Positions 7,247 to 27,870 of a stretch of DNA of 37,592 bases are shown here, piece by piece. Made by a program: the position numbers and the translations under genes. The stretch is taken from the IMG/VR virus record IMGVR_UViG_3300006033_000060, positions 1 through 37,592 of that record, one strand, 5' to 3'. The DNA comes from a virus. The notes beneath the pieces are model-generated. The model did no database searches. It had not been told where the DNA came from and saw only the letters and a program-made list of their open reading frames with translations. The number at the start of each line of letters is the position of its first letter. The first letter of the stretch is position 1.

Positions 7247-8731
7247 ATGGCGGATAAAAAGCGAAAGCCTGCAAACGACGATGATTTGGGGTTCGTGGCC
7301 GACGACGCCGCTGACCTCGGCTTCGTTCCCGAAGGTGGCGGCGATGATCTAGCTTTCCAGCCTGATCCGGCCTCCCCCACGGAAACCGATGGCGTGGTAT
7401 CGAAGGGAATCAAGACGCTCCAAGCGGGCGGCAAAGTTCTCGACTACGCTCGCGGCGCCATCGGGGGCCCGGCCCTCGCGGCGGGCCTCGAACTCCTCAC
7501 GGGCAAGGACGTGAACAAGCTAAAAAATTGGAAGAACGCGATCAACCCCACGCGCCTCGACACCTACCCCTCCTCGGCCGAGCTCATGGAAGAGGCGGGC
7601 GTGCCCGAGGGAGCGAAGGTTTCCGACTACACCGATAAGATTTCCAAGGGCGGCCTGCTCGACTTTACGCTGCGAGGCGGCGGGGGTCTAGCTCTCGACG
7701 TGGCCACCGACCCGCTCACCTACCTTTCGTTTGGCACCGCTACGGCCGCCAAGAAAGGCGCTCAGGGCGCAGCGAAGGGTGGGGCTAAGACCTTGCTCGA
7801 AATGCCCGTATTGAAGCAGGCAGCGGCCTTTGCCACTGCCCCCTCCCGGGCCGTGAGCGACATGGGCAAGAAAATCTTTTCGTGGGGCATCACGCCGATC
7901 GAGCAGGCCGGGGAGAAGTTCGGAAAAGACGCCGTGGCTGACACGATGTATAAGCACCGCATCAAGGGCTCGGCGCGGGCGATCGAAGAAAAGATCGGCA
8001 AGACCACGGGTGACTTGAAGCGCGAGCGCGACCTCGTGCTCCGCCAGGCCGATGCGGCCGGGGCCACCGTCGATCGCGGCGGAGCCTTCCAGGATTTCAC
8101 CGACGAGATTGCGCAAATGGTAGCTGACCGGCGCATCTCGCAGGAGCAGGGAAATAAAATTCTCGACGATGCCTTGCAGACCTACCTCCAGGGCGGAGAC
8201 CCGAGCACCATGCTCGCCACCCAATGGAAGTCGGACATGTACGGCGAGCTCCCGAACAAAGTGTGGGAAGCATCGAAGAATCCTTCCATCGGCCAGCGCC
8301 TAAATAAGAAGGCATCTAAGGGCTTGAAGGAAGGAATCGAAAACGCGGTTGGAAAATTCTCCGGCCGGGATGCGGCCGAAACTTTGAAGCTCAAGAACAA
8401 GGAGCTCGGCGAGCTCCTCTCGGTTTCTCCGGCCGCTCAGCGGTACGCGCAACAGCTCGATCGCCGCTACCTCGTAACTCCGTGGGACGTGGGAGGTGCG
8501 GGCTTCGGCGGCATGGTGGGCGGTTCTCCTGGAGCGGGGGCCGCGATGATCGGCGCCAAGAAGCTCCTCGAAATCGGCCGCCTCCCCTCGGTGCGCACGA
8601 ACACGGGAGCGTTCCTTCGCGATGTTTCCGAAGGCCCCCTCTCTGGCCCGTTCCTCGACATTTTGACCCGCCGGTCGGCGGCTGGTACCCTACGCAAAGG
8701 AGCTGAAAAAGATGGCAAAGACAAAAAGTGA
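7247..8731 (+). CDS. Candidate membrane-active ejection protein (494 aa)
   Basis: The start ATG lies three bases after the previous stop. The first 40 residues hold three short degenerate acidic repeats (DLGFVAD, DLGFVPE, DLAFQPD). Several glycine/alanine-rich hydrophobic stretches follow, for example GAIGGPALAAGLELL and GGGGLALDVATDPL, with a further one near the C-terminus around GAGFGGMVGGSPGAGAAMIG, separated by long charged helices. Hydrophobic Gly/Ala segments in a large protein of this cluster suggest it enters the host envelope during DNA ejection. The stop lies inside the next gene (start 8712). Function is inferred from position and composition; no catalytic motif is visible. Confidence 0.45.
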   Translation: MADKKRKPANDDDLGFVADDAADLGFVPEGGGDDLAFQPDPASPTETDGVVSKGIKTLQAGGKVLDYARGAIGGPALAAGLELLTGKDVNKLKNWKNAINPTRLDTYPSSAELMEEAGVPEGAKVSDYTDKISKGGLLDFTLRGGGGLALDVATDPLTYLSFGTATAAKKGAQGAAKGGAKTLLEMPVLKQAAAFATAPSRAVSDMGKKIFSWGITPIEQAGEKFGKDAVADTMYKHRIKGSARAIEEKIGKTTGDLKRERDLVLRQADAAGATVDRGGAFQDFTDEIAQMVADRRISQEQGNKILDDALQTYLQGGDPSTMLATQWKSDMYGELPNKVWEASKNPSIGQRLNKKASKGLKEGIENAVGKFSGRDAAETLKLKNKELGELLSVSPAAQRYAQQLDRRYLVTPWDVGGAGFGGMVGGSPGAGAAMIGAKKLLEIGRLPSVRTNTGAFLRDVSEGPLSGPFLDILTRRSAAGTLRKGAEKDGKDKK

Positions 8732-10094: not shown

Positions 10095-10294
10095 CAGAAT
10101 TCCTTTTTCATTTCCACTTTATCGCCAGGGCTAATCGCTACTTCCGACCACGGGAGCTTGTGCTCTTTCACCAGCATTTGGATGTAATGGGCCATGGCCT
10201 TAATTACCTCGACGACACCGATATCGTTTTCCTGGTCTTCAAAAACCATGGTTACTTTTCGTTTTCCCTCGGGAATTACTTCTACAGTTATCAT
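10094..10294 (-). CDS. Small protein of unknown function between polymerase and nuclease
   Basis: This 66-residue protein begins MITVEVIPEGK. I chose the ATG at 10294 because it overlaps the polymerase stop as ATGA and has GGAGG ten bases upstream; the ATG at 10303 would be one base from that Shine-Dalgarno. The N-terminus is beta-like, followed by a helix (VVEVIKAMAHYIQMLVKEH). It has the same beta-then-helix pattern and the words about antibody-free small phage regulators do not apply: I recognise no family. Expression is probably coupled to the polymerase. Confidence 0.55.
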   Translation of the reverse strand: MITVEVIPEGKRKVTMVFEDQENDIGVVEVIKAMAHYIQMLVKEHKLPWSEVAISPGDKVEMKKEF

Positions 10295-12234
10295 CCTGCC
10301 CATGCCTCCAAATCAGCCAAACTTGTTTTACTTGTACTCACCGAAACTTTTAGCGGGAGGTACTTGGCGGGGAAAGCCTCCTCCATAATGGTTTTGATTC
10401 TCGGAATCAAGAACTCCTCCCCATGAGCGCCATAGAAGTCGAGCTCGTCGTGGACGGTCAAAACCATTTTCGTTTTGTGACCCACGAGCAAGTCGTCGAT
10501 GCGGTTCATGGCGAGCTTCACCACGTCGGCGCACCCCCCGGCAATCAGGTAGTTCGGAGCTCGGTAGGCCCAGCGGGTGTCGGGGAAATAGTTCATGCGG
10601 CCCATCCAGTTCCGCACGTAACCCCTCCTCTCGGCCGCTTTGATCACGGCGCGAATGAGCACGTCGATTTCGGGAGAGGCATCAAGGATAGCCCGGCGAA
10701 TGGCGCGGGCTTTTTCTAAGGGAATGCCGAGCTGGTCGGCGAGCTTCTGGTCACCCCCACCGTAAATCGTCAAGAAGTTTGAAGTCTTAGCAGGTGAGCG
10801 CTTAATCTCGAATCCGGCCCGGCCAGTAGCAAGGTCGGCCGTCGCCTGGTGAACATCAGCCCCCTCCCGGACACGCTCAGCCAGAGGGGTGATATATCCA
10901 ACTTGCTCGCAGGCGTATTCGAGCATGAAGTAATATTCCATGGCCTTATAGTCGAAGCTCCAAATGTCGAAGCCGGGGGGAGGGATGATGGCTTGGCGAA
11001 TGAGCCACTCTTTGCGGGCGAGCTCTTTGCTCCCGCACTTCTCGCATTCTTGCAAGACCTCTTCGTGTTCATGCTTGCAAGCAAGGCAAACTTGTACGTT
11101 CTCTGACGTAAGGTTTTGGAAGTTTGGGCTCGACGATGAGAAGCGCCCATGCACGGCTCCATCGGGGTTGAAGTTTGGGTGAACGTAATTTCGCTTGTCG
11201 GCGTGGTAGAGGAAGCCGTGGTAGAAGCGCGAGCGCGACTCGTGATCGCGAATGGCGAGCACGGTCTTGGCGACGGGGTTTACAAACCCGGCAAGAACTT
11301 CCGATTCAAAGGTCGGATTGATTTGCCCAGTTTTCGTGGGCTTCCCGAACTCCCACCTTTCTTTGTCGGAGGCGAAGACTTCTTTGAAGAGGGGCTGGGA
11401 GTTTGAGATGTACTTCTTACCAGTGGACTTTTCAAACTCGGTGAACTTGTCGTTAAGTAGCTGGTCTTCTCGTGCGGCAGCCTTCTTGCAATAGTCAGGG
11501 TCGATGAGCACTCCATGATGTTCGATTCGAAAGACTGTGTGCGTGAGCCGACGTTCGTTTGCCAAGACCTCTTCGACAACTCTCGCTTTAGAGTTTTGAG
11601 AAAGGATTTCTCGGCTCTTTCGAGCGATGCTTTCAACTTGGCTCTCCCCGAGAGCGAAAGTTCCGCAAGCGTCGTCCAATCCGTAGCTAGATATAATTGG
11701 AAATGGTACTTTGAAATAGAATTTGTTTTTATCACGTTTCTTCCTTCCCGGTACAGTGACCCATTCCCAAGCGTGGTTCTCCTCGATCCACTTCTCAGGG
11801 CCCTCGTCTTTGGCCATGCCGATTCTTTTTAGCGCGGCGTCGAGGTCGTAGGAGAAGTGCTCATTGTATTCGACTCGGCCGATGGCTTTGGTGCAGTGGA
11901 TTTCCCCAGCAAGGAAGCAATTGTCTTGGGCAAGAATCGCCATATCGAACTTGGCGTTTTGGAGGAACCACAACTTCTGCGAATCACAAAACAGGTGTAG
12001 CCGGAGTCGCTCCAGGTGGGATGGGCTGAGAACCCATTCGGCACCAAGATCATCGTAGGCTTGGAAGTTGAAATAATAACCTTCATCTCTCCCGGCTGCG
12101 ATAATAGCCGAGAACAGTCGATCACCGTGATAGGGTCTGAGGCCATACGTTTCCGTGTCGAGCGCCAGGCGGGGCGCTTCCTTAAGCCGTTCTACAACGG
12201 CATCAAATTCACCCCGCCCGACGACTTTCTTCAT
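10291..12234 (-). CDS. polA: Family A DNA polymerase with 3'-5' exonuclease domain
   Basis: This 647-residue replicative polymerase has a proofreading domain with LALDTETYG (Asp26, Glu28), NAKFDMAIL (Asp97) and SSYGLDDACGT (Tyr184, Asp188 region). The polymerase domain has GRFSSSSPNFQNL, motif A WSFDYKAMEYY (Asp428; the usual S-Q-I of DYSQIE is replaced by K-A-M), motif B RSPAKTSNFLTIYGG and motif C LTVHDELDF (Asp596). There is no 5'-3' exonuclease domain, as usual in phages. Unusually, four cysteines (383, 386, 397, 400) form a C-x2-C...C-x2-C ribbon between the FQNL motif and motif A. The ATG overlaps the stop of the histone-like gene as ATGA. It copies the phage genome, presumably with the primase-helicase at 22030. 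Confidence 0.92.
   Translation of the reverse strand: MKKVVGRGEFDAVVERLKEAPRLALDTETYGLRPYHGDRLFSAIIAAGRDEGYYFNFQAYDDLGAEWVLSPSHLERLRLHLFCDSQKLWFLQNAKFDMAILAQDNCFLAGEIHCTKAIGRVEYNEHFSYDLDAALKRIGMAKDEGPEKWIEENHAWEWVTVPGRKKRDKNKFYFKVPFPIISSYGLDDACGTFALGESQVESIARKSREILSQNSKARVVEEVLANERRLTHTVFRIEHHGVLIDPDYCKKAAAREDQLLNDKFTEFEKSTGKKYISNSQPLFKEVFASDKERWEFGKPTKTGQINPTFESEVLAGFVNPVAKTVLAIRDHESRSRFYHGFLYHADKRNYVHPNFNPDGAVHGRFSSSSPNFQNLTSENVQVCLACKHEHEEVLQECEKCGSKELARKEWLIRQAIIPPPGFDIWSFDYKAMEYYFMLEYACEQVGYITPLAERVREGADVHQATADLATGRAGFEIKRSPAKTSNFLTIYGGGDQKLADQLGIPLEKARAIRRAILDASPEIDVLIRAVIKAAERRGYVRNWMGRMNYFPDTRWAYRAPNYLIAGGCADVVKLAMNRIDDLLVGHKTKMVLTVHDELDFYGAHGEEFLIPRIKTIMEEAFPAKYLPLKVSVSTSKTSLADLEAWAG
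11035..11088 (-). other. Zinc-ribbon-like insertion within the DNA polymerase
   Basis: Codons 383-400 of the polymerase encode CLACKHEHEEVLQECEKC. The two C-x-x-C pairs, ten residues apart, are typical of a small zinc ribbon or knuckle. Bacterial Pol I has only a short linker at this place, between the Q-N-I/L motif and motif A. Zinc binding is inferred from cysteine spacing. Confidence 0.6.
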
Positions 12235-12696: not shown

Positions 12697-13494
12697 TCAC
12701 CGTAGCACAGACACCCTAAAAGGTGCAGCAAGTTTTTCTTGCTCAACTTTGCCGCGTTTCACTCTCTTCACCCAGCACTTGGGAAAATTCTCATTCGTGC
12801 CCCGAACATTTTCCCACGAGTAACCGAGGGCGGTGGCCTGTTCCTTGCCTACACCGCCGTCGCCACCCTTGCCCACCCAGGGCCCCAGGATATCGGCCTT
12901 CAAAATGCTCCACGGTTCCCGGGCGTAAGCCAGGATATCGTCGATATGGTAGCACCCGAGCACGAGGTCGAGCATGAGCTCCACGTCGTTGTCGGCCCGG
13001 TGCAGTTTGCGGTGATCCATCCGAACGCCGTGATCGAGCGCGAGGTGCGAGAGTTTTTTGCAGGTAAATTTCTGGGGGTAAGGCACGTCTTGGTAGGTGC
13101 AAATCCACTCCCGCGAGAGGGGTTCTAAGCTCAGCTTCTTTACCTGACTATTATAGACGGTCTCGTCAAAGAGCTTATTGTGCGCCATGACAATATCCGC
13201 CATCGCCACGAGCTCCCTCACTTTAGCCATGGCCGGGAGGGGGGCACGCCCTCGCTCCCGTAAATCGCGGTCGGAAATGCCCGTCAGTTCGACGATCTCC
13301 TGGGTTTGAGGGGGGTAGCTAGGGTCGTATACCAAATCGCAGTAGCGCTCGATTTCGCGCCTCTCCGGCAGACCGTTTCGGTTGGCGAAAATTTCGAGCT
13401 CCACGAGCACGGCCCCCACCTCGGTCACGTTCGTGGTTTCCGCCTCTTTTCCCTGGGTCTCAAAATCGAGGCCCAAAACTTTCAAGTATCTCAT
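12697..13494 (-). CDS. DnaQ-like 3'-5' exonuclease (DEDDh family)
   Basis: This 265-residue protein shows all DEDDh motifs: exo I GLDFETQG (D-x-E), exo II AHNKLFDETVY (H-N-x-x-F-D) and exo III HRADNDVELML, where the His five residues before Asp marks the h subtype. This is the fold of the epsilon proofreading subunit and RNase T. About 90 extra C-terminal residues after the exonuclease core end in a basic stretch. The polymerase already has its own exonuclease, so this enzyme probably does separate work such as DNA or RNA end trimming or host DNA degradation. The ATG overlaps the preceding stop as ATGA. Confidence 0.85.
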   Translation of the reverse strand: MRYLKVLGLDFETQGKEAETTNVTEVGAVLVELEIFANRNGLPERREIERYCDLVYDPSYPPQTQEIVELTGISDRDLRERGRAPLPAMAKVRELVAMADIVMAHNKLFDETVYNSQVKKLSLEPLSREWICTYQDVPYPQKFTCKKLSHLALDHGVRMDHRKLHRADNDVELMLDLVLGCYHIDDILAYAREPWSILKADILGPWVGKGGDGGVGKEQATALGYSWENVRGTNENFPKCWVKRVKRGKVEQEKLAAPFRVSVLR

Positions 13495-16396: not shown

Positions 16397-18031
16397 CTAT
16401 CCCTGGCGAGAGATGCCGTCAACCAGTTCTTTGTACCCGATCGTTTTTTCTGTCTGGAGCAACGTGTCACTCATACTTGCTTTTTGAGCAAGTTTCTCAA
16501 GTACAAGCTCATCTATCGTTTGATGGCATACGAGGTCGTAGTGCGTCACCTTCTCCGTTTGCCCGCCACGGTGATTCCGGGCCCGGGCTTGGAGGTAGTG
16601 TTCGAGCGAATGGGTGCGCGAATAAAAGATAGAGTACGGAGCGTTAACGAGATTGATACCAATGCCACCGCTACCAGGATGGCCGAGGAAAATCCTTTTG
16701 CTTGGATCGGTCTTGAATTGCTCGACGGCCTCTCGCTTCTTAGCATCAGATATTTGCCCGTGGGCTTCGACGTATCCCAATCCCAGCTTCTCGAAAATTT
16801 TCCTGAGCTGCCCATAGTTCTCCTGCCATACGGCCCACACGAGCACCTTCGAGTGGGGCGCAATTTCTTCTAAGAGCTCGATCAGTGCTTCGTCCTTCGG
16901 TGTGTCGGGGAAACGAATGTCGGCGCGATCCGCCTCATCCCCCACCCCCTCGGTCGAAACGAAGCCCGACGCGATTTGCATAAGGCGAAGCGCCTTTACG
17001 ATTGCAAGACTTGCCGAGCAAGCCTGGGTTTCGGTAACGTATGCCACTAGGTCTTTTTTCATTTGGCCGTAGACCCGGGCCTGTTCTTTCGTTAAACCTA
17101 CCCTATGGATAACGGGAACTTCATCCGGCAAATCAAGCGACTCCTTCTTAGTAGCCCGAACCGATATATGGCTGAGAATTTCCTGGAGCTCGCCGATCGC
17201 ATCAAACCCATCCCGCTCTACAGTAGCCGGGCGCCAGTCGGGGAAGTACCTGTCTTTAGGAAGCCCAGCGTTTCTGTCTCGGAAGTACATTGCCCTAAAC
17301 ACAAAGAAGTTATCGACGAGCTGACCCGAGAAAATATCGCCAGCCCACTTGATCCTCGCGAGGTCGGCCTCGCTTACATTCGCCATGCGTGTAAAGTAGC
17401 TCCGGGCCGCAAGGTGCTCCTTGTACTTGGGATGGAGAGTGGGCCACCCGCCAAGCATTACTTTGACCTGCATGAATATATCGAGAGGCGAGTTGAGAAT
17501 GGGAGAGCCCGAGAGGATTAGCACCCGAGGCCGGGGGAGGGGCCGCTTTGCTTTCTGATCCCACGGGTTCGCGAGCTCGTAAGCGAGCTTCGAGCGCTGG
17601 GCGGTGGGGTTCTTGAGGCGGTGGCACTCGTCGAAAATGAGCTCCTGTGGTAGCCAGAGCTTCATGGCGTGGAAGAGGTCTTTCATGAGGAGGGCTTCGT
17701 AGTTGGTGACGAAAATCCTCCCCTCGGCCGAGCCTTTAAGAAAAGCGGAAACGCGCTCCTTCTGGGAGCCCTGGAGCAAAGTGATCTTGCTCGCCGGTAT
17801 CTTGGTGAATTTGAGCCACTCCTCTTTCCACTGAGGAACCACGAGCGGCGGCGTAAAGATGATCGAGCGAAGGATTTGCTTCTCTTCGTTCATCCGACGC
17901 CGGAGAAGCTGGATCGCGCCGTAGGTCTTACCGAGACCCATCTCCCAGAATAGGGCGAAGCCGGGTTTTCCTGGCGCCAGCTCGAACGCCCTCTCCTGGT
18001 GCTTCCACGCTTTTACTTCCGCCACTTTCAC
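16397..18031 (-). CDS. SNF2-type superfamily 2 helicase/ATPase
   Basis: This 544-residue protein has Walker A MGLGKT (residues 31-36), an Ia-like IIFTPPLVVPQW, motif II DECHRLKN (134-141), motif III LILSGSPILNS and, in the second lobe, GSGGIGINLVNA (motif V) and QARARNHRGGQ (motif VI). The order and the G-x-G-I-N-L form match SNF2-family translocases of the compact phage type. Such enzymes move along double-stranded DNA and remodel protein-DNA complexes or aid recombination. The start is GTG (18031) with GGAG about ten bases upstream. It follows a small hairpin, so it may be partly uncoupled from the genes before it. No nuclease or methylase domain is fused. Confidence 0.88.
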   Translation of the reverse strand: MKVAEVKAWKHQERAFELAPGKPGFALFWEMGLGKTYGAIQLLRRRMNEEKQILRSIIFTPPLVVPQWKEEWLKFTKIPASKITLLQGSQKERVSAFLKGSAEGRIFVTNYEALLMKDLFHAMKLWLPQELIFDECHRLKNPTAQRSKLAYELANPWDQKAKRPLPRPRVLILSGSPILNSPLDIFMQVKVMLGGWPTLHPKYKEHLAARSYFTRMANVSEADLARIKWAGDIFSGQLVDNFFVFRAMYFRDRNAGLPKDRYFPDWRPATVERDGFDAIGELQEILSHISVRATKKESLDLPDEVPVIHRVGLTKEQARVYGQMKKDLVAYVTETQACSASLAIVKALRLMQIASGFVSTEGVGDEADRADIRFPDTPKDEALIELLEEIAPHSKVLVWAVWQENYGQLRKIFEKLGLGYVEAHGQISDAKKREAVEQFKTDPSKRIFLGHPGSGGIGINLVNAPYSIFYSRTHSLEHYLQARARNHRGGQTEKVTHYDLVCHQTIDELVLEKLAQKASMSDTLLQTEKTIGYKELVDGISRQG

Positions 18032-18894: not shown

Positions 18895-19283
18895 TCGTCC
18901 CATCCTTTCGGATAACCAGCCTCGCAGAGCTCATCATCCTTCTCGTTATGCATTTGCTTTCTAAACCCGTCAGACCTGTACGTATTGTCGCACCAGTCGA
19001 TGAGCTCTAAATTGCGCTTTCGGTTATCTAAACTGTTCCCATTTACATGGTCCACCACCAGACCACTCTGATAGTGTTTGCACTCTTTCCCTGGTGGAAG
19101 GCCGAGGATGAATCGGTGCATACGAATTTTCGTCTGCTTGCCGTTGATCCGCTGCCAACGAATTGCGTAAAATTTTGTACCGCGACTTTCCTTGGAGGCG
19201 CACCACTTGAACTGATTCACCCGCTCGAAGTCTTCGTCGTCCACCAATGCCACGAGCCCCTGGCTCAAAGGTATTTCTTTCAT
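18891..19283 (-). CDS. HNH endonuclease (free-standing, homing type)
   Basis: This 130-residue protein carries a typical HNH core: MHRFILGLPPG, then VDHVNGNSLDNRKRNLEL (VDH, N, then N of HNH) and CDNTYRSDGF. The layout, with an N-terminal AP2-like beta region (LVDDEDFERVNQFKWC) before the HNH, is that of phage HNH_3 proteins, which usually behave as mobile intron-less homing endonucleases. The ATG overlaps the stop of the membrane-protein gene as ATGA. No flanking repeats or intron signs are visible. It may have entered together with its unusual upstream neighbour. Confidence 0.85.
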   Translation of the reverse strand: MKEIPLSQGLVALVDDEDFERVNQFKWCASKESRGTKFYAIRWQRINGKQTKIRMHRFILGLPPGKECKHYQSGLVVDHVNGNSLDNRKRNLELIDWCDNTYRSDGFRKQMHNEKDDELCEAGYPKGWDE

Positions 19284-20461
19284 TGGTATCCACAGTAGCC
19301 CCTAGCATCGTCAAGTTCAAAGGAGGTTTTGTAGGTAAGCCCAACAAGTACGAAAAGTAGAAACGAGTGAACGGGCCAATGGAGCGGGAAGTTAAAAAGC
19401 ATCACGCTCCCGTATGCGGCGAGAGCTGCAAAGAGGTGCGGGTTCTTCTTTAGCGCGGCGCGGCCGAGACCATATGCCCCGACAAAAGCACTCGCCAATC
19501 CAAACTGCCCTTGCTCAAACAAAATTTGTAGCCAGTCGTTATGGGCGAATAGGTACCAGGCCCCGTTCGGGTCGGTGTTGATTTGAATGATCGGGAGCAT
19601 GGTGCGCACGGTGCCGAGCCCATAGCCAAACCAGCGCACGAATACGCCACCCTCCCACCAGAAATCAAAGAGCCACTTCCACATACCAAAGCGCGAGTTG
19701 TCGTCGATTAACCCCTGGGGTGAAAGAATTACGGCGCCCAGGAATAGGGGCGCTACCATGGCGGCCATGGTGAGCGGCCAGCGTAAGGAAGCTACAAGGT
19801 GCGGGGCGCTTCTCGTCCAGTCGGGCTTAGCCCAGAGATACGCCCCACCCCCCACGGCCAGGGCGACCAGGGGGGTGGAGGTTTTCGTGAGGAGGATGGC
19901 AATTAAGCCAGTGCCCCAAAAGATGGCGCGGCCGAGGCGCACCTTTCTCCAGTAGTGCTTAACCTCGGCATCCAAAAGAAATAGGCACACGACGATAAAG
20001 CTCGCGGCCATAGATGGATTGTCGAACAGCATGGTTTGCCGGGAGGCATCCCACCAAGGCAAGCTCCCTAGAATTATGATCGCGGTGAGAAATCCGCAAA
20101 ACCCCAGGGCCCTACCGAGCTTGACGAAATTGTCCCGGGAAAAAGTGAAAAAGCAAAAGAGAAAGGTGAGAAAAACGATTAACGCTCTGCTCGAATCTTG
20201 ACGCAGCACGGCCTGGAGCTCGAACGGCTCGCCGCTGTAGCGAGAGAACCAGAAGGCAGAGACGAGACCTGAGAAACAAGTCGAGAAAGTGATCGCCGCG
20301 AGGTGCGGGTCGATGCGGCGGCTCACGAAGTAGGCAAGGTAAAGGGAGAGCATCACGAGAAGCGCAGCCCACCTGCTCATCCAAATGGAATTCATGGACA
20401 TATCGCCCAACGTCCAGAAGAACAGAATCCCGACAAGCAAGGCAGGCCACACTTTTTTCAT
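19280..20461 (-). CDS. O-antigen polymerase/ligase-like membrane protein (Wzy/WaaL/PilO type)
   Basis: This 393-residue protein is almost entirely hydrophobic, with about ten membrane spans (for example VWPALLVGILFFWTLG, AALLVMLSLYLAYF and LIVFLTFLFCFFTF). The large loop near residue 310 has AHNDWLQILFEQGQFGL, matching the HN-x-x-L-x-x-x-x-E-x-G-x-x-G-L pattern of the Wzy_C domain of O-antigen ligases, polymerases and pilin oligosaccharyltransferases. The preceding DNSRFGMWKW and GYGLGTVR also fit that family. These enzymes transfer or polymerise lipid-linked glycans on the periplasmic side of the inner membrane. The ATG has TAGGAG upstream. Its place in an early operon suggests it alters the host surface during infection, perhaps excluding other phages. 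Family call fairly secure; role inferred. Confidence 0.75.
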   Translation of the reverse strand: MKKVWPALLVGILFFWTLGDMSMNSIWMSRWAALLVMLSLYLAYFVSRRIDPHLAAITFSTCFSGLVSAFWFSRYSGEPFELQAVLRQDSSRALIVFLTFLFCFFTFSRDNFVKLGRALGFCGFLTAIIILGSLPWWDASRQTMLFDNPSMAASFIVVCLFLLDAEVKHYWRKVRLGRAIFWGTGLIAILLTKTSTPLVALAVGGGAYLWAKPDWTRSAPHLVASLRWPLTMAAMVAPLFLGAVILSPQGLIDDNSRFGMWKWLFDFWWEGGVFVRWFGYGLGTVRTMLPIIQINTDPNGAWYLFAHNDWLQILFEQGQFGLASAFVGAYGLGRAALKKNPHLFAALAAYGSVMLFNFPLHWPVHSFLLFVLVGLTYKTSFELDDARGYCGYQ

Positions 20462-20772: not shown

Positions 20773-20924
20773 TCGCATACCCGCCTTTCACCGTAGAGGC
20801 TTTCGTAGGCATGCACCACTTCGCCGGGGCTCTGGGGGTAGAGGTCTTTCACGCTATCCATGCAGGCTTGCTCGCCGTGACAGATGGCCATAATTGCAAT
20901 GAGAACAGCTTTCGAGAGAATCAT
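20769..20924 (-). CDS. 51-residue protein with hydrophobic N-terminus
   Basis: This gene has AAAGGA six bases upstream of its ATG and its stop overlaps the next start as ATGA. It begins MILSKAVLIAIMAICHGEQA: a hydrophobic, signal-peptide-like or membrane segment, followed by a short acidic part (YPQSPGEVVHAYESLYGE). Three cysteines (positions 15, 21 and 50) suggest a possible disulphide if exported. It may be a small envelope protein made with the O-antigen-like enzyme. Confidence 0.6.
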   Translation of the reverse strand: MILSKAVLIAIMAICHGEQACMDSVKDLYPQSPGEVVHAYESLYGERRVCE

Positions 20925-20933
20925 AAATATCCT

Positions 20934-21203
20934 TTATTTGTAAGGGTTGGGTGTTTCTTTTGCGTGGGGATGAGAGCCAAGATACTCCGTGGTCTCATCC
21001 ATCCAGCCTTGAAGCGTGCTCGCCCCATCGTCTTCCGGGGTGTTTGGATCGCCCAGCACGTTATGCTGGTAGGCCAGCACGTCACGCACCGCTTTGAAAT
21101 AGGTGAGCTTCACCATTTCCTTTATTTGCGGATGAGCGCCAGGGGGAAGGGAGTGGGCCGCGAACTGATCGAACATTTGGTTGATCGTCTTATACTTGCT
21201 CAT
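20934..21203 (-). CDS. Protein of unknown function (89 aa)
   Basis: The ATG at 21203 lies inside the previous gene with GGAAGG upstream. The protein is helical (MSKYKTINQMFDQFAAH; QIKEMVKLTYFKAVRDVL) with a Pro/His/Asn-rich tail. The pattern, with a helix-rich body and GWMDE, recalls small phage proteins of unknown role. The gap before the next gene is ten bases. Confidence 0.55.
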   Translation of the reverse strand: MSKYKTINQMFDQFAAHSLPPGAHPQIKEMVKLTYFKAVRDVLAYQHNVLGDPNTPEDDGASTLQGWMDETTEYLGSHPHAKETPNPYK

Positions 21204-21543
21204 CGAGCACCTTCCCTCCGGCGGCCTTTACGAGGTCGGCCGGGGTTTCGTAGGTCTTGCACCACGATTGGTAGTCAGGATGGGCCACGTCGCGGGTCTC
21301 GTATACGTTGCCTGACTTACCCGCTTTACGAATCGAGAGCTTCACCATTCGTCCCTCGAAGTAGTCGAGGAACAAATTCCCCTCTGGATCGAGGAGGCAA
21401 TCCTTGCCGTGCGCTTTCTCCAGCTCTTCTAGGCTATAGTCTCCCGCCGTAGCGTGAAGAAAGCCCATGCCCATAGGCACCGAAGCGTTGATCGCGAGCA
21501 CACCCATTTTACTCACCTGGTCTTTTGTCGCGGTGAATCTCAT
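21190..21543 (-). CDS. Protein of unknown function (117 aa)
   Basis: Its ATG overlaps the repressor stop as ATGA, so it is the second gene of the leftward operon and probably coupled to repressor synthesis. Mixed alpha/beta, with LLDPEGNLFLDYFEGRMVKLSI in the middle split by short loops and SWCKTYETPADLVKAAGGKV at the end. No catalytic motif or membrane segment is seen. Confidence 0.55.
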   Translation of the reverse strand: MRFTATKDQVSKMGVLAINASVPMGMGFLHATAGDYSLEELEKAHGKDCLLDPEGNLFLDYFEGRMVKLSIRKAGKSGNVYETRDVAHPDYQSWCKTYETPADLVKAAGGKVLDEQV

Positions 21544-21809
21544 TGGAACGCCTCGCTCACCTTGGCCACTTCCACCGAAACAAGCTCAGCTTGCATATTG
21601 GCTGGAGGAATGTCGTAGAGCTTGGCCATTTTCTTAGCCGAAGACAACGCGGGCGAACACTTGCCCCGCTCAATATTAGATATGAATTGTGGAGAGGAAT
21701 ACCCGAGCTTCTTGGCTACCTCGCCTTGGCTCATTCCTTTTTCCTCGCGCTTCTTAGCCAAGAATTTGCCAAGACGCACGCGCTCACGCCGTACTAAATC
21801 TTTTTTCAT
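21540..21809 (-). CDS. XRE-family helix-turn-helix repressor
   Basis: This 89-residue protein has a standard Cro/CI-type HTH: LGKFLAKKREEKGMSQGEVA, then KKLGYSSPQFISNIERGK, where G-x-S-x-x-x-I-S-x-x-E-R-G is the recognition-helix signature, followed by two closing helices. The ATG is preceded by TTGGGG. It is the first gene of the leftward operon, facing the divergent primase-helicase gene across about 220 bases with repeats. It most likely binds there and represses its own and possibly the opposite promoter. It is single-domain without an autoprotease, so Cro-like action is more likely than CI-like. No integrase is seen, so it need not imply lysogeny. Confidence 0.85.
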   Translation of the reverse strand: MKKDLVRRERVRLGKFLAKKREEKGMSQGEVAKKLGYSSPQFISNIERGKCSPALSSAKKMAKLYDIPPANMQAELVSVEVAKVSEAFQ

Positions 21810-21843
21810 TTATACCCCAAGTAAGATTGTTGAACTTGTATGG

Positions 21844-21872
21844 CTTGTAACAGGGAGTATTTAGGTCGTCAA
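21844..21872 (-). promoter_or_regulatory. Promoter of the leftward operon (candidate)
   Basis: On the minus strand TTGACG (21867-21872), a 17-base spacer and TACAAG (21844-21849) resemble a sigma-70 promoter with five of six -35 matches and four of six -10 matches. Transcription would start about 28 bases upstream of the repressor ATG. Confidence 0.5.
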
Positions 21873-21969
21873 GAAAAAAGAAACCCGTTTTGACGCACCA
21901 TAACTTCACTTGGGGTTTGGAAAGGTGGGTACAAAACGGGCTCGCCCGTGAAGGCAGGAATCACTCTAC

Positions 21970-21999
21970 TTGACAGACCTTAAAAACGCAAGCTAGGCT
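21970..21999 (+). promoter_or_regulatory. Promoter of the primase-helicase gene (candidate)
   Basis: A perfect -35 hexamer TTGACA (21970-21975) is followed after 18 bases by TAGGCT (21994-21999), which keeps the three most conserved -10 positions. Transcription would start around 22006, overlapping the TACTTGGGG copy at 22009. Confidence 0.45.
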
Positions 22000-22029
22000 T
22001 CCCTTTCGTACTTGGGGGGAATCAAATAC

Positions 22030-24378
22030 GTGGAACTACGCGATAAACTTGCTGAGCAAGGCATTACAATACAGCCCATTTTCAATCACCCGCAAGGAAA
22101 ACAACGGGATGGGGCACAATGGTTAATCGCCAAAGAATTTGATATTGGCGGTAAACTTGTACAGCTTGTTTGGGCTGGAAACTTCAAGACCGGCGCCAAG
22201 CTCGAATGGAAAAGCGACAACGCTTCCGAGCTCAAGGGCGACGAAAAGAAGCAGATGGACGCCGCGATCGAAGCCATCTTGGCCGGGGAGAGACTTGAGC
22301 GCGAGGCCTTCTGGCTAGAAGTAAAGGAAAGGGCTGAGAAGCTATGGAACGAAGCCACCGACCGGGGAACCCACCCCTATCTCCAGAAGAAGAAAATCGA
22401 ATCGTTACATGGCGGGCGAGTTTGGATAAACCCGGAGAACAATCACCCGGTACTTCTGATCCCGATGCGGGATTCGGAAGGGGTCTTGTGGAACGTAACG
22501 CGCATCTATTCGAAGAAATTCGAAGGGACGGGGGCCGACAAGTTCATCCTAAAAGGCGGAAAAAAGCAGGGCTTGTTTCACCTGCTGGGAGAAATTCGTG
22601 AAGCCTCTACAATTTATTTCTGTGAAGGATGGGCCACAGGTGCATCTGTACACGAGGCTATGGGGGGAGCGCCGACTGTTATATGTTTCGACGCAGGAAA
22701 TCTCGAACCCGTTGCTCTGGTGCTTAGAGAGAAATATCCAAATGCTTCTTTCGTCTTCGCCGCTGACAACGATCTTTTCACGAAGAGAAGCAATGGCTCT
22801 CCGTGGAACCCAGGTCGCGAGAAGGCTCTTGCCGCTGCAAGCGCTACGAAGGGAACTGTTATTCTTCCGCGTTTCCCTCAGGCTCTACTTGACAGTGCTA
22901 AACCGACTGACTTTGACGACCTCCGATTTCACCTGGGCCGAAAAGAAGTTGAGGAGCAATTATCCAATCCCGCCAAGGTTATCCAAGAAGTAGTCCCGCT
23001 TGCGAAAGAGGGGAAGGGGGCCAAGGCTAAAGTTTCCGAGAAAGCCATTTGCGCTTCTCTCCTCGAATACTTTGACGGCAAGCTCGTCAAGTCTAAGAGC
23101 GATTTGTTCTCATATAGAAATAACTACTGGCATCTCCTTGATGAGAATGGCCGGGATGCGGTGAAGCGCCTGATTGCGGCTCTCGCGCCTGACTACGGGA
23201 GCCGGGACATCGACGGCGCCTTTCGGTATTTCATGCTCCACGCCCCTACTCCTCCCCCTGGCGTGAATCTCTTCCAACCCTCGCCGTTTGCCGCCAATTT
23301 CGAAAACGGCACGCTCCACGTTCGCCGGGAGGGGGGCCGATACTCGGCTGAATTCAAGGCCCACTCGCCCCACGACTGGTTGACGAGCAAGCTCCCCTTC
23401 GATTTCCCCGGCATTCCCGGCACGCCCGAGTACCGCAAGGCCGTCAACCCCGAATTCGAATCCATGCTCCGCCGGGTATGGCAAGGGGATAACGATATCG
23501 ACGATAAGATCAGGCTTTACAAGCAAGTCTTGGGCGCCTGTTTGATTCCGCTCTTTCCCACGATCGTTCTTTTTCAGGGCCGCCCCGGAACAGGCAAGTC
23601 TACCTTGCTCAAACTCCTTCGCCACCTGGTAAGCCCTGAGAACATTTCCACCGTCGATCCCGCCGATTTTCAAGGGTTCCTCATGGAGAGCATGATCGGC
23701 AAGCTGTTAAATATAAATACCGATATTGATTTAGTTAAGCCCATGAAAGATTCGATGGTGAAGAAAATCATCGACCGGGTGCCCATCCAAATTAACCGCA
23801 AAAATGAGAAGGTAGTTCACGCATTCCTCCCGGCCGTGCATGCCTTCGCGGCGAATAACCTACCCCGCACCTTGGATGGCGAATCGAGAGCTTACGAGCG
23901 CCGCATGGTGATCGTGAAAACGGAGAAGTTCCAGCCGTCGGGCAATTACGATAAGGAATTCGATTTGCACGTCTGGGAAGCTGGGCCTGAGGGCGTGATT
24001 TGCGCGGCCGTGGAGGGCTTGTTCGACTTGCTCGAATCCAATGGCCATTACCACAATTTGGAATCGGGCAAGGTCTTGGTAAGAGAGATGCAAGACCGAA
24101 ACGATCCAATCGCCCAGTTCTTAAAAGACGTGGATGCGGGCGACGTGCGGGATGGAAACGTGCTCGTGGAGCGGGGCCCCAATTGCCGTATTACCCGACA
24201 AAACTTGTGGGCTTGTTTCAAGACCTGGCGCGACGAGCAGGATCGTTATACGCAGGGCGTCGGTAAGCACCAGCTCTTCCGGCAATTGGAAGCCAAGGGC
24301 TACGAAATTGTCACGGTGCATGGGGTGCGGTGCTTCAAAGGCATAGGAAGCGCCGAGTCAGAGGGCGCCAAGTTCTAG
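22030..24378 (+). CDS. Primase-helicase: TOPRIM domain plus SF3/D5-like helicase (P4 alpha-like)
   Basis: I start at GTG 22030 (MELRDKLAEQG), nine bases after GGGGGGA; a TTG at 22012 would add six residues but lacks a ribosome site. The protein has 782 residues. TOPRIM-type motifs are at about 193-250: IYFCEGWATGASVHEA (catalytic Glu), FDAGNL and FAADNDLF (D-x-D). A linker leads to a D5-N-like region and an SF3-type helicase: Walker A GRPGTGKST (about 517-525), LLNINTDIDLV, and AFAANNLPRTLDG (sensor/motif C with Asn), followed by RAYERRMVIVKT. This primase-plus-SF3 layout is that of phage P4 alpha-type replication initiators, which also bind origin repeats. Fittingly, a dense repeat array begins at its stop codon. 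It probably opens the origin, unwinds DNA and primes synthesis. Confidence 0.88.
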   Translation: MELRDKLAEQGITIQPIFNHPQGKQRDGAQWLIAKEFDIGGKLVQLVWAGNFKTGAKLEWKSDNASELKGDEKKQMDAAIEAILAGERLEREAFWLEVKERAEKLWNEATDRGTHPYLQKKKIESLHGGRVWINPENNHPVLLIPMRDSEGVLWNVTRIYSKKFEGTGADKFILKGGKKQGLFHLLGEIREASTIYFCEGWATGASVHEAMGGAPTVICFDAGNLEPVALVLREKYPNASFVFAADNDLFTKRSNGSPWNPGREKALAAASATKGTVILPRFPQALLDSAKPTDFDDLRFHLGRKEVEEQLSNPAKVIQEVVPLAKEGKGAKAKVSEKAICASLLEYFDGKLVKSKSDLFSYRNNYWHLLDENGRDAVKRLIAALAPDYGSRDIDGAFRYFMLHAPTPPPGVNLFQPSPFAANFENGTLHVRREGGRYSAEFKAHSPHDWLTSKLPFDFPGIPGTPEYRKAVNPEFESMLRRVWQGDNDIDDKIRLYKQVLGACLIPLFPTIVLFQGRPGTGKSTLLKLLRHLVSPENISTVDPADFQGFLMESMIGKLLNINTDIDLVKPMKDSMVKKIIDRVPIQINRKNEKVVHAFLPAVHAFAANNLPRTLDGESRAYERRMVIVKTEKFQPSGNYDKEFDLHVWEAGPEGVICAAVEGLFDLLESNGHYHNLESGKVLVREMQDRNDPIAQFLKDVDAGDVRDGNVLVERGPNCRITRQNLWACFKTWRDEQDRYTQGVGKHQLFRQLEAKGYEIVTVHGVRCFKGIGSAESEGAKF

Positions 24379-24716
24379 GGTGCAAATTTGCACCCGGCAA
24401 ACGAAATAGTCGGAATAGACGCAGAGCGCAGGTGCGGTGTACCGCATCGGGGCGCTAGGTCTTTGCGCCTTGCGTCGGGGTTTGGGTGCAAAATAATTGC
24501 ACCCTAGGTGCAGTTTCAAAAGCAAAATTGCACCCACTTTCTGCGGTGCGTTATTCAATGATTTTCTATACTTGGTCCGGGGAGGGTGCAATTATGCAAT
24601 TTTAGAAGTATATTACGTGTACACGAGAGCTGGAGCTTTAACGCTATGCATATGGGATTCTGTGCAAGCGATTAAAACAAAATTGCACCCAGCCCTAAAT
24701 TGCACCCTCACGGTGC
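24315..24716. repeat. Iteron-like array, probable replication origin
   Basis: Eight exact copies of GGGTGCAA in either orientation lie at 24378-24385, 24388-24395, 24484-24491, 24497-24504, 24528-24535, 24584-24591, 24683-24690 and 24700-24707. The first two form the perfect palindrome GGGTGCAAATTTGCACCC, and the third and fourth face each other across five bases. The core GGTGC/GCACC occurs 15 times between 24315 and 24716, far above chance. An AT-rich stretch (about 24590-24680) lies between copies. There is no credible gene from 24379 to 24717. Position just after an SF3 primase-helicase suggests initiator binding sites and an unwinding region; regulation of the flanking genes is an alternative. 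Confidence 0.7.
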
Positions 24717-24717
24717 G

Positions 24718-24873
24718 TCAGCCCTTCCCCCGGCGGTAGTGCCGAAACAGGTCGAAGTCACGGCGCGTTGACAGTAGCGCGTCACGAATACACCACCAAG
24801 CGATTAAGCCGCACGGCAGCATGTAAAGATGGCTCCAAATAGCCGAAATTAGCTGGTTGAGGGTATCAAGCAC
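24718..24873 (-). CDS. 51-residue small membrane protein
   Basis: This gene starts at GTG 24873 with a perfect AAGGAG seven bases upstream. The protein begins MLDTLNQLISAIWSH and has one hydrophobic span (LYMLPCGLIAWWCI, about residues 16-29) followed by an Arg-rich tail (DALLSTRRDFDLFRHYRRGK), predicting a cytoplasmic C-terminus. Its stop lies at the edge of the iteron array. Function unknown. Confidence 0.6.
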   Translation of the reverse strand: MLDTLNQLISAIWSHLYMLPCGLIAWWCIRDALLSTRRDFDLFRHYRRGKG

Positions 24874-27072: not shown

Positions 27073-27870
27073 ATGAACTTTTTACCGCACCCTGAGGAAA
27101 TGAGCCGCGATTCCTTGACCCCCGCACCCCGAAATCCGACCCAAGTTGCCCAAGCCGAGGTGATCGAGCAGACGCCCGTGGTGCTTTGGGATGATTCGGA
27201 CCCGCGCTCCGTGGTGAACCTGGTTCCCGCAAAAGTGAGGGAGCGCATGCAGGAGGCGCTCTTCGAAGAGGGGGCCCTTTTTGAGATGAGCGAGCACGAG
27301 CTCTTCCGGGCTTTGAAGGAAAGAAGCACGACGGGCCTCTCGTATACGCCGAACCCCACCGACAATCGCCTGCGCCTGAAATTTTGGATGGAGTACGACT
27401 ACTGCCAGGCCTACCAGCTCTCGCGCATCGACATTTCCCGGGTGATCGCCGGTATCTGCACCCAGGAATACTTCTATAAAAAGTATTTACAGTCGCCCAC
27501 GAAGGTCGCCTGGTTCCTCTGCCCCCCGGTCAATTACGAAACCAAGGCCCGGGAAGCGCTCGAATTTTCCCTGGAGCAGATGCGCGACATTCTCGCGATC
27601 CCGCATATTACGGACGGGGGCCGGGTCGATACGAAGCTCGGGGAATTGAAAGCCAAGATTCACGCCATGCTCGATATCCGGGTGAAGGGCGCCCCGATCC
27701 AGAAGAGCGTAGTGGCAAATCTCACGGGGAAAGCGGCGGCGCAAGCGGTGGCCGCTGCGGGCGTCGGTGAGACGATGGCCGATATCCAGAAGAAACTTGA
27801 AGCCGCGAGAAAACGCGAATTGGAGCTGACGAATGGCGGAGCCATCACAATCGAAGCCCAAAAAGTCTAG
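27073..27870 (+). CDS. Probable terminase small subunit
   Basis: I use ATG 27073 (MNFLPHPEEMSRDS, 265 aa); an in-frame extension to 26959 would include a non-protein-like N-terminus, and no start has a strong ribosome site. The central region (LRLKFWMEYDYCQAYQLS, then RIDISRVIAGICTQEYFYKKYL) is helical and fits a DNA-binding helix-turn-helix unit; a second helical part (LEFSLEQMRDILAIP and LGELKAKIHAMLDIRV) may drive oligomerisation. It overlaps the large terminase by 38 bases. Small subunits recognise the packaging site, likely nearby. The call is by position and helical make-up; no sequence motif proves it. Confidence 0.6.
   Translation: MNFLPHPEEMSRDSLTPAPRNPTQVAQAEVIEQTPVVLWDDSDPRSVVNLVPAKVRERMQEALFEEGALFEMSEHELFRALKERSTTGLSYTPNPTDNRLRLKFWMEYDYCQAYQLSRIDISRVIAGICTQEYFYKKYLQSPTKVAWFLCPPVNYETKAREALEFSLEQMRDILAIPHITDGGRVDTKLGELKAKIHAMLDIRVKGAPIQKSVVANLTGKAAAQAVAAAGVGETMADIQKKLEAARKRELELTNGGAITIEAQKV

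What the first reader, a model, noticed from the sequence alone, without database searches (positions are those of the whole stretch)
24315..24716. Dense iteron array directly after a P4-type primase-helicase
Eight exact GGGTGCAA copies in both orientations and 15 GGTGC cores occur in about 400 bases, starting inside the end of the primase-helicase gene and filling a gene-free gap with an AT-rich stretch. P4 alpha-type proteins bind repeats at ori and crr, so this arrangement is a strong origin candidate for a phage that also has its own DNA polymerase.
Basis: partly seen in the sequence, partly recalled or inferred. Interest (0 to 1): 0.75.

Follow-up and report, generated by a model that had tools for sequence, protein, structure and literature searches.

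The report
Phage replication origin beside its initiator gene
Right behind the gene for its primase-helicase this virus carries a tight cluster of short repeated DNA words, almost certainly where that protein sits down to start copying the viral DNA, and the same gene-then-repeats layout turns up, spelled with different words, across many related phages.

Summary
All eight GGGTGCAA copies in the 37.6-kb record lie in 24378-24707 (3 forward, 5 reverse); no 8-mer clusters beyond 4 in 60 shuffles. The array starts on the last base of the primase-helicase stop codon and fills the gap up to a convergent 51-aa ORF ending at 24718. The protein has a Toprim primase domain, a D5/DUF5906 SF3 helicase (profile match to SaPI5 PriRep, PDB 7OLA, E 9e-17) and a probable C-terminal winged helix aligning weakly with the P4 alpha origin-binding domain. 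Among 41 non-redundant viral lineages picked only by their Toprim primase, 17 carry such an array within 700 bp downstream of the gene, against 0/34 upstream and 2/356 other windows; cellular genomes replicate this (11/39 versus 9/338). Repeat sequence differs by lineage and the attached motor may be DUF5906, VapE or AAA_25, yet the position holds. Best reading: a single-site replicator bound by the adjacent protein, working like the rep-ori of SaPI/PICI islands and the P4 crr, here in a phage with its own family-A DNA polymerase. It is not a PICI and lacks P4's second site. Binding and start-site mapping remain untested.

The parts
22012..24378 (+). Primase-helicase / putative replication initiator, 788 aa: Toprim_3 primase (res. 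201-307), D5_N/DUF5906 SF3 helicase (421-630), C-terminal winged-helix-like region (~725-780)
   Evidence: Pfam PF13362, PF08706, PF19263 above cut-off; phrog_2249 DNA primase E 6.5e-70; TIGR01613 P4-family primase C-term E 1.5e-18 but below its cut-off; profile hit to SaPI5 primase-helicase 7OLA E 9e-17
24378..24717 (.). Iteron array / putative replicator: 8 exact GGGTGCAA in both orientations
24378..24395 (.). Perfect 18-bp palindrome GGGTGCAAATTTGCACCC: two head-to-head iterons, overlapping the stop codon by one base
   Evidence: I25
24484..24591 (.). Second iteron group: copies at 24484(+), 24497(-), 24528(-), 24584(+)
24592..24682 (.). 91-bp iteron-free, AT-rich gap (64% AT; genome 44%); candidate DNA-unwinding element
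   Evidence: the 30 bp from 24591 are among the 0.05% least stably stacked positions of the genome
24683..24707 (-). Right-hand iteron pair (24683, 24700)
24718..24873 (-). Convergent 51-aa ORF (GTG start) bounding the array
10291..12234 (-). Family-A DNA polymerase of the same genome, the likely elongating polymerase
   Evidence: PF00476 E 4.7e-43, phrog_17
16397..18031 (-). SNF2/DEAD-type helicase of the replication/recombination region
   Evidence: PF00176, phrog_62 E 1.8e-101
12697..13494 (-). DNA polymerase exonuclease-subunit-like protein
   Evidence: phrog_192 E 2.7e-19

Best explanation
24378-24717 is the phage's cis-acting replicator (origin, or an origin-activating crr-like site). 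The primase-helicase encoded immediately upstream binds the GGGTGCAA iterons through its C-terminal winged helix, assembles as a ring or pair of rings on the two iteron groups, melts the AT-rich 91-bp gap between them, unwinds with its SF3 helicase and primes with its Toprim domain; the phage's own PolA then elongates. Shown: the array, its uniqueness in the genome, its exact placement, the protein's domains, and the family-wide association of 3' arrays with this primase class. Inferred: that this protein is what binds the array, that melting and replication start there, and which polymerase is used.
For: All 8 copies in one 330-bp intergenic stretch. Same architecture in P4, whose annotated crr (8-bp type-1 repeats, both orientations) lies 46 bp past alpha, in Marinobacter phage PS3 (GGGTGACC, 35 bp past the primase) and in Morganella phage-plasmid p46903_1 (GGTAGACA). 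Survey not selected for repeats: 17/41 lineages have an array (at least 5 copies of one 8-mer) within 700 bp downstream, 0/34 upstream, 2/356 other windows, Fisher p 8e-17; separate cellular-genome lineages: 11/39 downstream, 1/35 upstream, 9/338 other, p 3e-7. Most arrays start 0-30 bp past the stop and span about 250 bp; the iteron-free gap begins at a conserved offset (median absolute deviation 11 bp, null 45, P 0.001). Iteron sequences differ by lineage but many share a GGTG/GGTA core (P4 GGTGAACAGT, Morganella GGTAGACAGT, window GGGTGCAAtTT). The helicase matches the SaPI5 primase-helicase; the C-terminal profile aligns with the P4 origin-binding domain over 59 columns, E 5e-5, probability 68, and that P4 domain is the solved 1KA8. 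SaPI Rep binds iterons directly downstream of its gene through its C-terminal domain (PMC7581432); a Gram-negative PICI rep-ori of this layout supported plasmid maintenance (PMC6092414).
Against: No binding or replication data. The window's helicase/C-terminal lineage has no close relative: a protein search found none in viral contigs, and its nearest helicase relatives (Achromobacter JWF type) carry no array. The iteron layout is lopsided (6 left, 2 right of the gap) and the gap, taken alone, is no larger than random placement gives. About 60% of related Toprim lineages show no array under the same test. AlphaFold models were poor (mean pLDDT 36 and 50), so the winged helix rests on sequence only. 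GC skew shows no clear switch.
Confidence: 0.83

Rival explanations
1. Operator array: a transcription regulator (for example the HTH_3 repressor at 21540-21809) binds the repeats.
For: Head-to-head palindromes suit a dimeric regulator; an HTH_3 repressor gene is nearby.
Against: The gap lies between convergent genes, so no promoter is expected; one weak sigma-70-like match was found there, 0.4 expected by chance. The HTH_3 gene has its own operator-like repeat, ACTTGGGG, at 21815, 21908 and 22010 in the divergent promoter gap, and no exact GGGTGCAA is there. Arrays in other lineages follow the primase gene.
Confidence: 0.05
2. Partition (parS-like) or packaging (pac) site.
For: Clustered inverted repeats are typical of such sites; a terminase-like gene starts at 27833.
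Against: No ParA/ParB-like gene was identified in the proteins scanned; the array is 3 kb from the terminase; in relatives it goes with the primase.
Confidence: 0.05
3. Not the start site itself but an accessory cis site, as P4 crr is to P4 ori, or a copy-number or incompatibility iteron set, with replication starting elsewhere.
For: Its placement equals P4 crr, which sits several kb from P4 ori; iterons often control copy number (general knowledge).
Against: P4 carries a second cluster of the same iteron at ori; the window has none, so no second site for the same protein is visible.
Confidence: 0.15
4. Bidirectional terminator or REP-like intergenic hairpins between convergent genes.
For: Convergent genes; the stretch folds better than shuffles (z -5.2).
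Against: Inverted repeats give folding by construction. Only one terminator-like hit, 1.3 expected by chance; a terminator needs one or two hairpins, not eight copies of one exact octamer.
Confidence: 0.03

Closest known systems
SaPI / PICI rep-ori (SaPI5 PriRep, EcCICFT073 pri-rep-ori)
   Same: Origin immediately 3' of a primase-helicase gene; multiple short iterons in two groups around an AT-rich gap; SF3 helicase homologous to SaPI5 PriRep (7OLA, E 9e-17); one site
   Different: Primase is Toprim, not archaeo-eukaryotic as in SaPI5; element encodes terminase- and portal-like proteins and PolA, so is not a satellite; iteron sequence differs; groups lopsided
Satellite phage P4 alpha protein with ori/crr
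   Same: Toprim + SF3 helicase + C-terminal DNA-binding domain in one protein; 8-bp iterons in both orientations directly 3' of the gene (crr); repeat core GGTG
   Different: P4 repeat is GGTGAACA and occurs at two separated sites, ori and crr; window GGGTGCAA at one site only; overall protein identity about 25%
Marinobacter phage PS3 primase locus (unannotated array found here)
   Same: Related N-terminal Toprim half; array GGGTGACC, 7 copies, directly after the gene
   Different: Helicase half is not readily alignable with the window's; PS3 has an integrase
SCCmec Cch2 helicase and downstream putative origin
   Same: D5-type helicase binds direct repeats just downstream of its operon (PMC7581432)
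   Different: Separate primase-polymerase partner (CCPol-MP) instead of a Toprim domain; only three 5-nt iterons

Membership tests
SaPI/PICI-type rep-ori | Origin region immediately 3' of the initiator gene | tested here: met
   First iteron overlaps the stop codon
[quoted passage not shown]
   6 and 2 iterons around a 91-bp gap of 64% AT; gap size within random expectation, though local duplex stability is among the lowest in the genome
SaPI/PICI-type rep-ori | SF3/D5 helicase initiator | tested here: met
   PF08706, PF19263; 7OLA E 9e-17
SaPI/PICI-type rep-ori | Initiator plus array sufficient for autonomous replication | not testable with these tools
   needs a plasmid assay
PICI (as an element) | Satellite lacking a full structural/packaging gene set | tested here: not met
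   terminase large subunit-like and portal-like proteins plus PolA encoded
P4 alpha / ori-crr | Toprim primase + SF3 helicase in one protein | tested here: met
P4 alpha / ori-crr | C-terminal winged-helix origin-binding domain (1KA8) | tested here: inconclusive
   hhalign probability 68, E 5e-5 over 59 columns; structure model too weak
P4 alpha / ori-crr | Type-1 iteron GGTGAACA | tested here: not met
   Window repeat is GGGTGCAAtTT; only the GGTG core is shared
P4 alpha / ori-crr | Two separate iteron sites (ori and crr) | tested here: not met
   All exact copies in one cluster
P4-family primase (TIGR01613) | Score above curated cut-off 108.7 | tested here: not met
   66.8 bits, E 1.5e-18

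The most novel reading that the evidence does not exclude
A Toprim primase module with a 3' iteron replicator is a mobile, self-contained replicon cassette spread over many full-size phages, in which helicase halves (DUF5906 SF3, VapE, AAA_25) have been swapped while the 3' array, with lineage-specific spelling, stays put. The window is a case where this satellite-type replicon runs alongside a phage-encoded family-A polymerase. If so, the layout described in 2018 as shared by PICIs and no other known bacterial replicon (PMC6092414) is general among these phages.
Probability: 0.6. Interest if true: 0.65.

Novelty: new variant of a known kind. Interest (0 to 1): 0.55.

Why it matters
Origins are unknown for most phages. 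A rule such as 'look directly behind the Toprim primase-helicase gene for an 8-bp iteron array' gives immediately testable origins in dozens of uncultured phages, and a natural set of matched protein and repeat pairs from which the recognition code of these DNA-binding domains could be worked out. It also places the satellite-type rep-ori in ordinary phages, bearing on where satellites got their replicons.

Tried and rejected
Direct protein searches of viral and genome contigs with the window protein alone found no relative. An alignment of 11 diverse primases was too divergent to search with. Helicase-half relatives (JWF type, prim-pol N-termini) were found but have no arrays. Known phages with a P4-type primase, PolA and a DEXD helicase (Proteus RS10pmA, Henu15, Carvaje, PD0307, Lizalica, TP1604) showed no array beside the primase. 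PolA was found in 1 of 16 array-bearing records, the window itself. GC skew gave no origin signal. No tandem repeats. AlphaFold without and with 7 sequences gave low confidence; the fold search ranked D5 and SaPI5 helicases on top but is treated as weak support only. A fixed pattern of two facing iterons with a 3-base AT spacer was not present.

Full report
OBSERVATION. The octamer GGGTGCAA occurs eight times in the 37,592-base record and all eight lie between 24378 and 24707, three on the plus and five on the minus strand; about one is expected and none of 100 shuffles reaches eight. Counting every 8-mer on both strands, the densest 400-bp cluster in the window has eight copies, while 60 dinucleotide shuffles give three (59 times) or four (once). 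The 15 GGTGC cores between 24315 and 24716 are as reported, but that pentamer is common in the window (129 copies), so the three cores inside the coding sequence need not be sites. The first exact repeat begins on the last base of the TAG stop codon at 24376-24378 and forms with the second the perfect palindrome GGGTGCAAATTTGCACCC. The array ends against a convergent 51-codon ORF whose stop codon ends at 24718. It therefore fills a convergent intergenic gap almost exactly.

THE NEIGHBOURING PROTEIN. The 788-residue product has a Toprim_3 domain, D5_N and DUF5906 helicase domains, all above Pfam cut-offs, and falls in PHROG 2249, DNA primase. It scores E 1.5e-18 but below cut-off on the P4-family primase C-terminal model. 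A profile of its helicase and C-terminal half with six viral relatives finds the SaPI5 primase-helicase 7OLA at E 9e-17 as top solved structure by sequence (identity of 7OLA as SaPI5 primase-helicase). The last 120 residues align with the P4 alpha C-terminal region over the winged-helix stretch with E 5e-5 but a probability of only 68; the P4 profile retrieves its solved origin-binding domain 1KA8. Structure predictions were too poor to settle the fold. The genome also encodes a family-A DNA polymerase, a SNF2-type helicase, and terminase- and portal-like proteins. The record is an IMG/VR virus record without end repeats.

COMPARATIVE TEST. P4's annotated crr, with its 8-bp type-1 repeats in both orientations, lies directly 3' of alpha. 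An unsupervised 8-mer cluster scan on phages and plasmids with distantly related primases picked up, besides P4, an array directly after the primase of Marinobacter phage PS3 (GGGTGACC) and of a Morganella phage-plasmid (GGTAGACA), and no comparable array directly after the primase in the other phages scanned. To avoid choosing examples, 80 viral loci were fetched purely by similarity of the Toprim primase, reduced to 47 lineages at 80% identity, and tested: at least five copies of one 8-mer within 300 bp occur in the 700 bp downstream of the gene in 17 of 41 usable lineages, in the 700 bp upstream in 0 of 34, and in 2 of 356 other windows (Fisher p 8e-17). Lineages from cellular genomes that are not in the viral set gave 11 of 39, 1 of 35 and 9 of 338 (p 3e-7). 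Most viral arrays start 0-30 bp past the stop codon and span about 250 bp. Their longest iteron-free gap is usually 70-110 bp and starts near +95; the scatter of that start (median absolute deviation 11 bp) is far less than random placement gives (45 bp, P 0.001), although no single gap is significant by itself. Examples that can be read by eye are L090 and L087. Iteron spelling differs between lineages, with a recurring GGTG or GGTA core. The Toprim domain is joined to DUF5906, VapE or AAA_25 ATPases in different array-bearing lineages, so the array's position does not depend on one helicase class.

MECHANISM. In SaPIs the Rep helicase recognises with its C-terminal domain iterons directly downstream of its gene (PMC7581432), and in PICIs two iteron sets flank an AT-rich region immediately 3' of the initiator gene, with rep-ori function shown on plasmids for EcCICFT073 (PMC6092414). 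By analogy, the window's protein would bind GGGTGCAA, assemble as rings, melt the 91-bp AT-rich gap at 24592-24682 (64% AT; the 30 bp from 24591 are among the 0.05% least stable positions in the genome), unwind and prime, with PolA elongating. Binding, melting and polymerase choice are inferred. The window departs from the commonest layout: six iterons lie left and two right of the gap, and the array is 330 bp long.

RIVALS. A repressor operator is unlikely: genes converge here, no good promoter is present, and the nearby HTH_3 gene has its own repeated operator-like word ACTTGGGG in the divergent gap. A partition or packaging site is not excluded but does not explain the association with the primase. 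A crr-like accessory role with initiation elsewhere is the most serious rival; against it, no second cluster of the same iteron exists in the window. A terminator does not need eight exact octamers.

NOVELTY. The kind is known (P4 crr, SaPI/PICI rep-ori). New here are its presence in a PolA-encoding phage genome and the demonstration that 3' iteron arrays are a common, position-conserved companion of Toprim primases with swapped helicase halves, which broadens a layout described in 2018 as found in PICIs and no other known bacterial replicon. Limits: the literature search was of open-access papers only; terminase and integrase content of the relatives was checked with single families, so their full-size status rests on annotation of PS3 and on contig lengths and integrase hits for others.

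Noticed in passing
window 21815-22017: Three of the four ACTTGGGG copies of the window sit in the divergent gap between an HTH_3 repressor gene (21540-21809, minus) and the primase-helicase gene: probable operators of an early-gene switch.
   Followed up: partly
window 19280-20461 and 20811-21452: Weak Wzy_C (O-antigen ligase-like, just below cut-off) and GNAT acetyltransferase matches lie between the replication genes and the repressor; unusual cargo if real.
   Followed up: no
L051 around 8260-8520 (and the L039/L053 group): In this lineage the iteron array (GGTGGGAC) begins about 385 bp past the primase stop instead of 0-30 bp, with similar span; what fills the spacer was not examined.
   Followed up: no
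L055 7945-8300: An array (CAGGAACG, 9 exact copies) follows a Toprim protein whose ATPase is AAA_25, not an SF3 helicase: same layout with a different motor.
   Followed up: partly
L099-L106: JWF-type primase-helicases share the window's helicase and C-terminal half but lack arrays downstream.
   Followed up: partly
window 24417-24462: Imperfect 22-bp inverted repeat (73%) within the array between the first two iteron groups; possible hairpin of unknown role.
   Followed up: no
L121 and L185: Dense arrays of 13 (TGAAACAA) and 12 (GATCCCGA) copies 320-630 bp past Toprim primase genes in cellular contigs; could be iterons or another repeat class.
   Followed up: no
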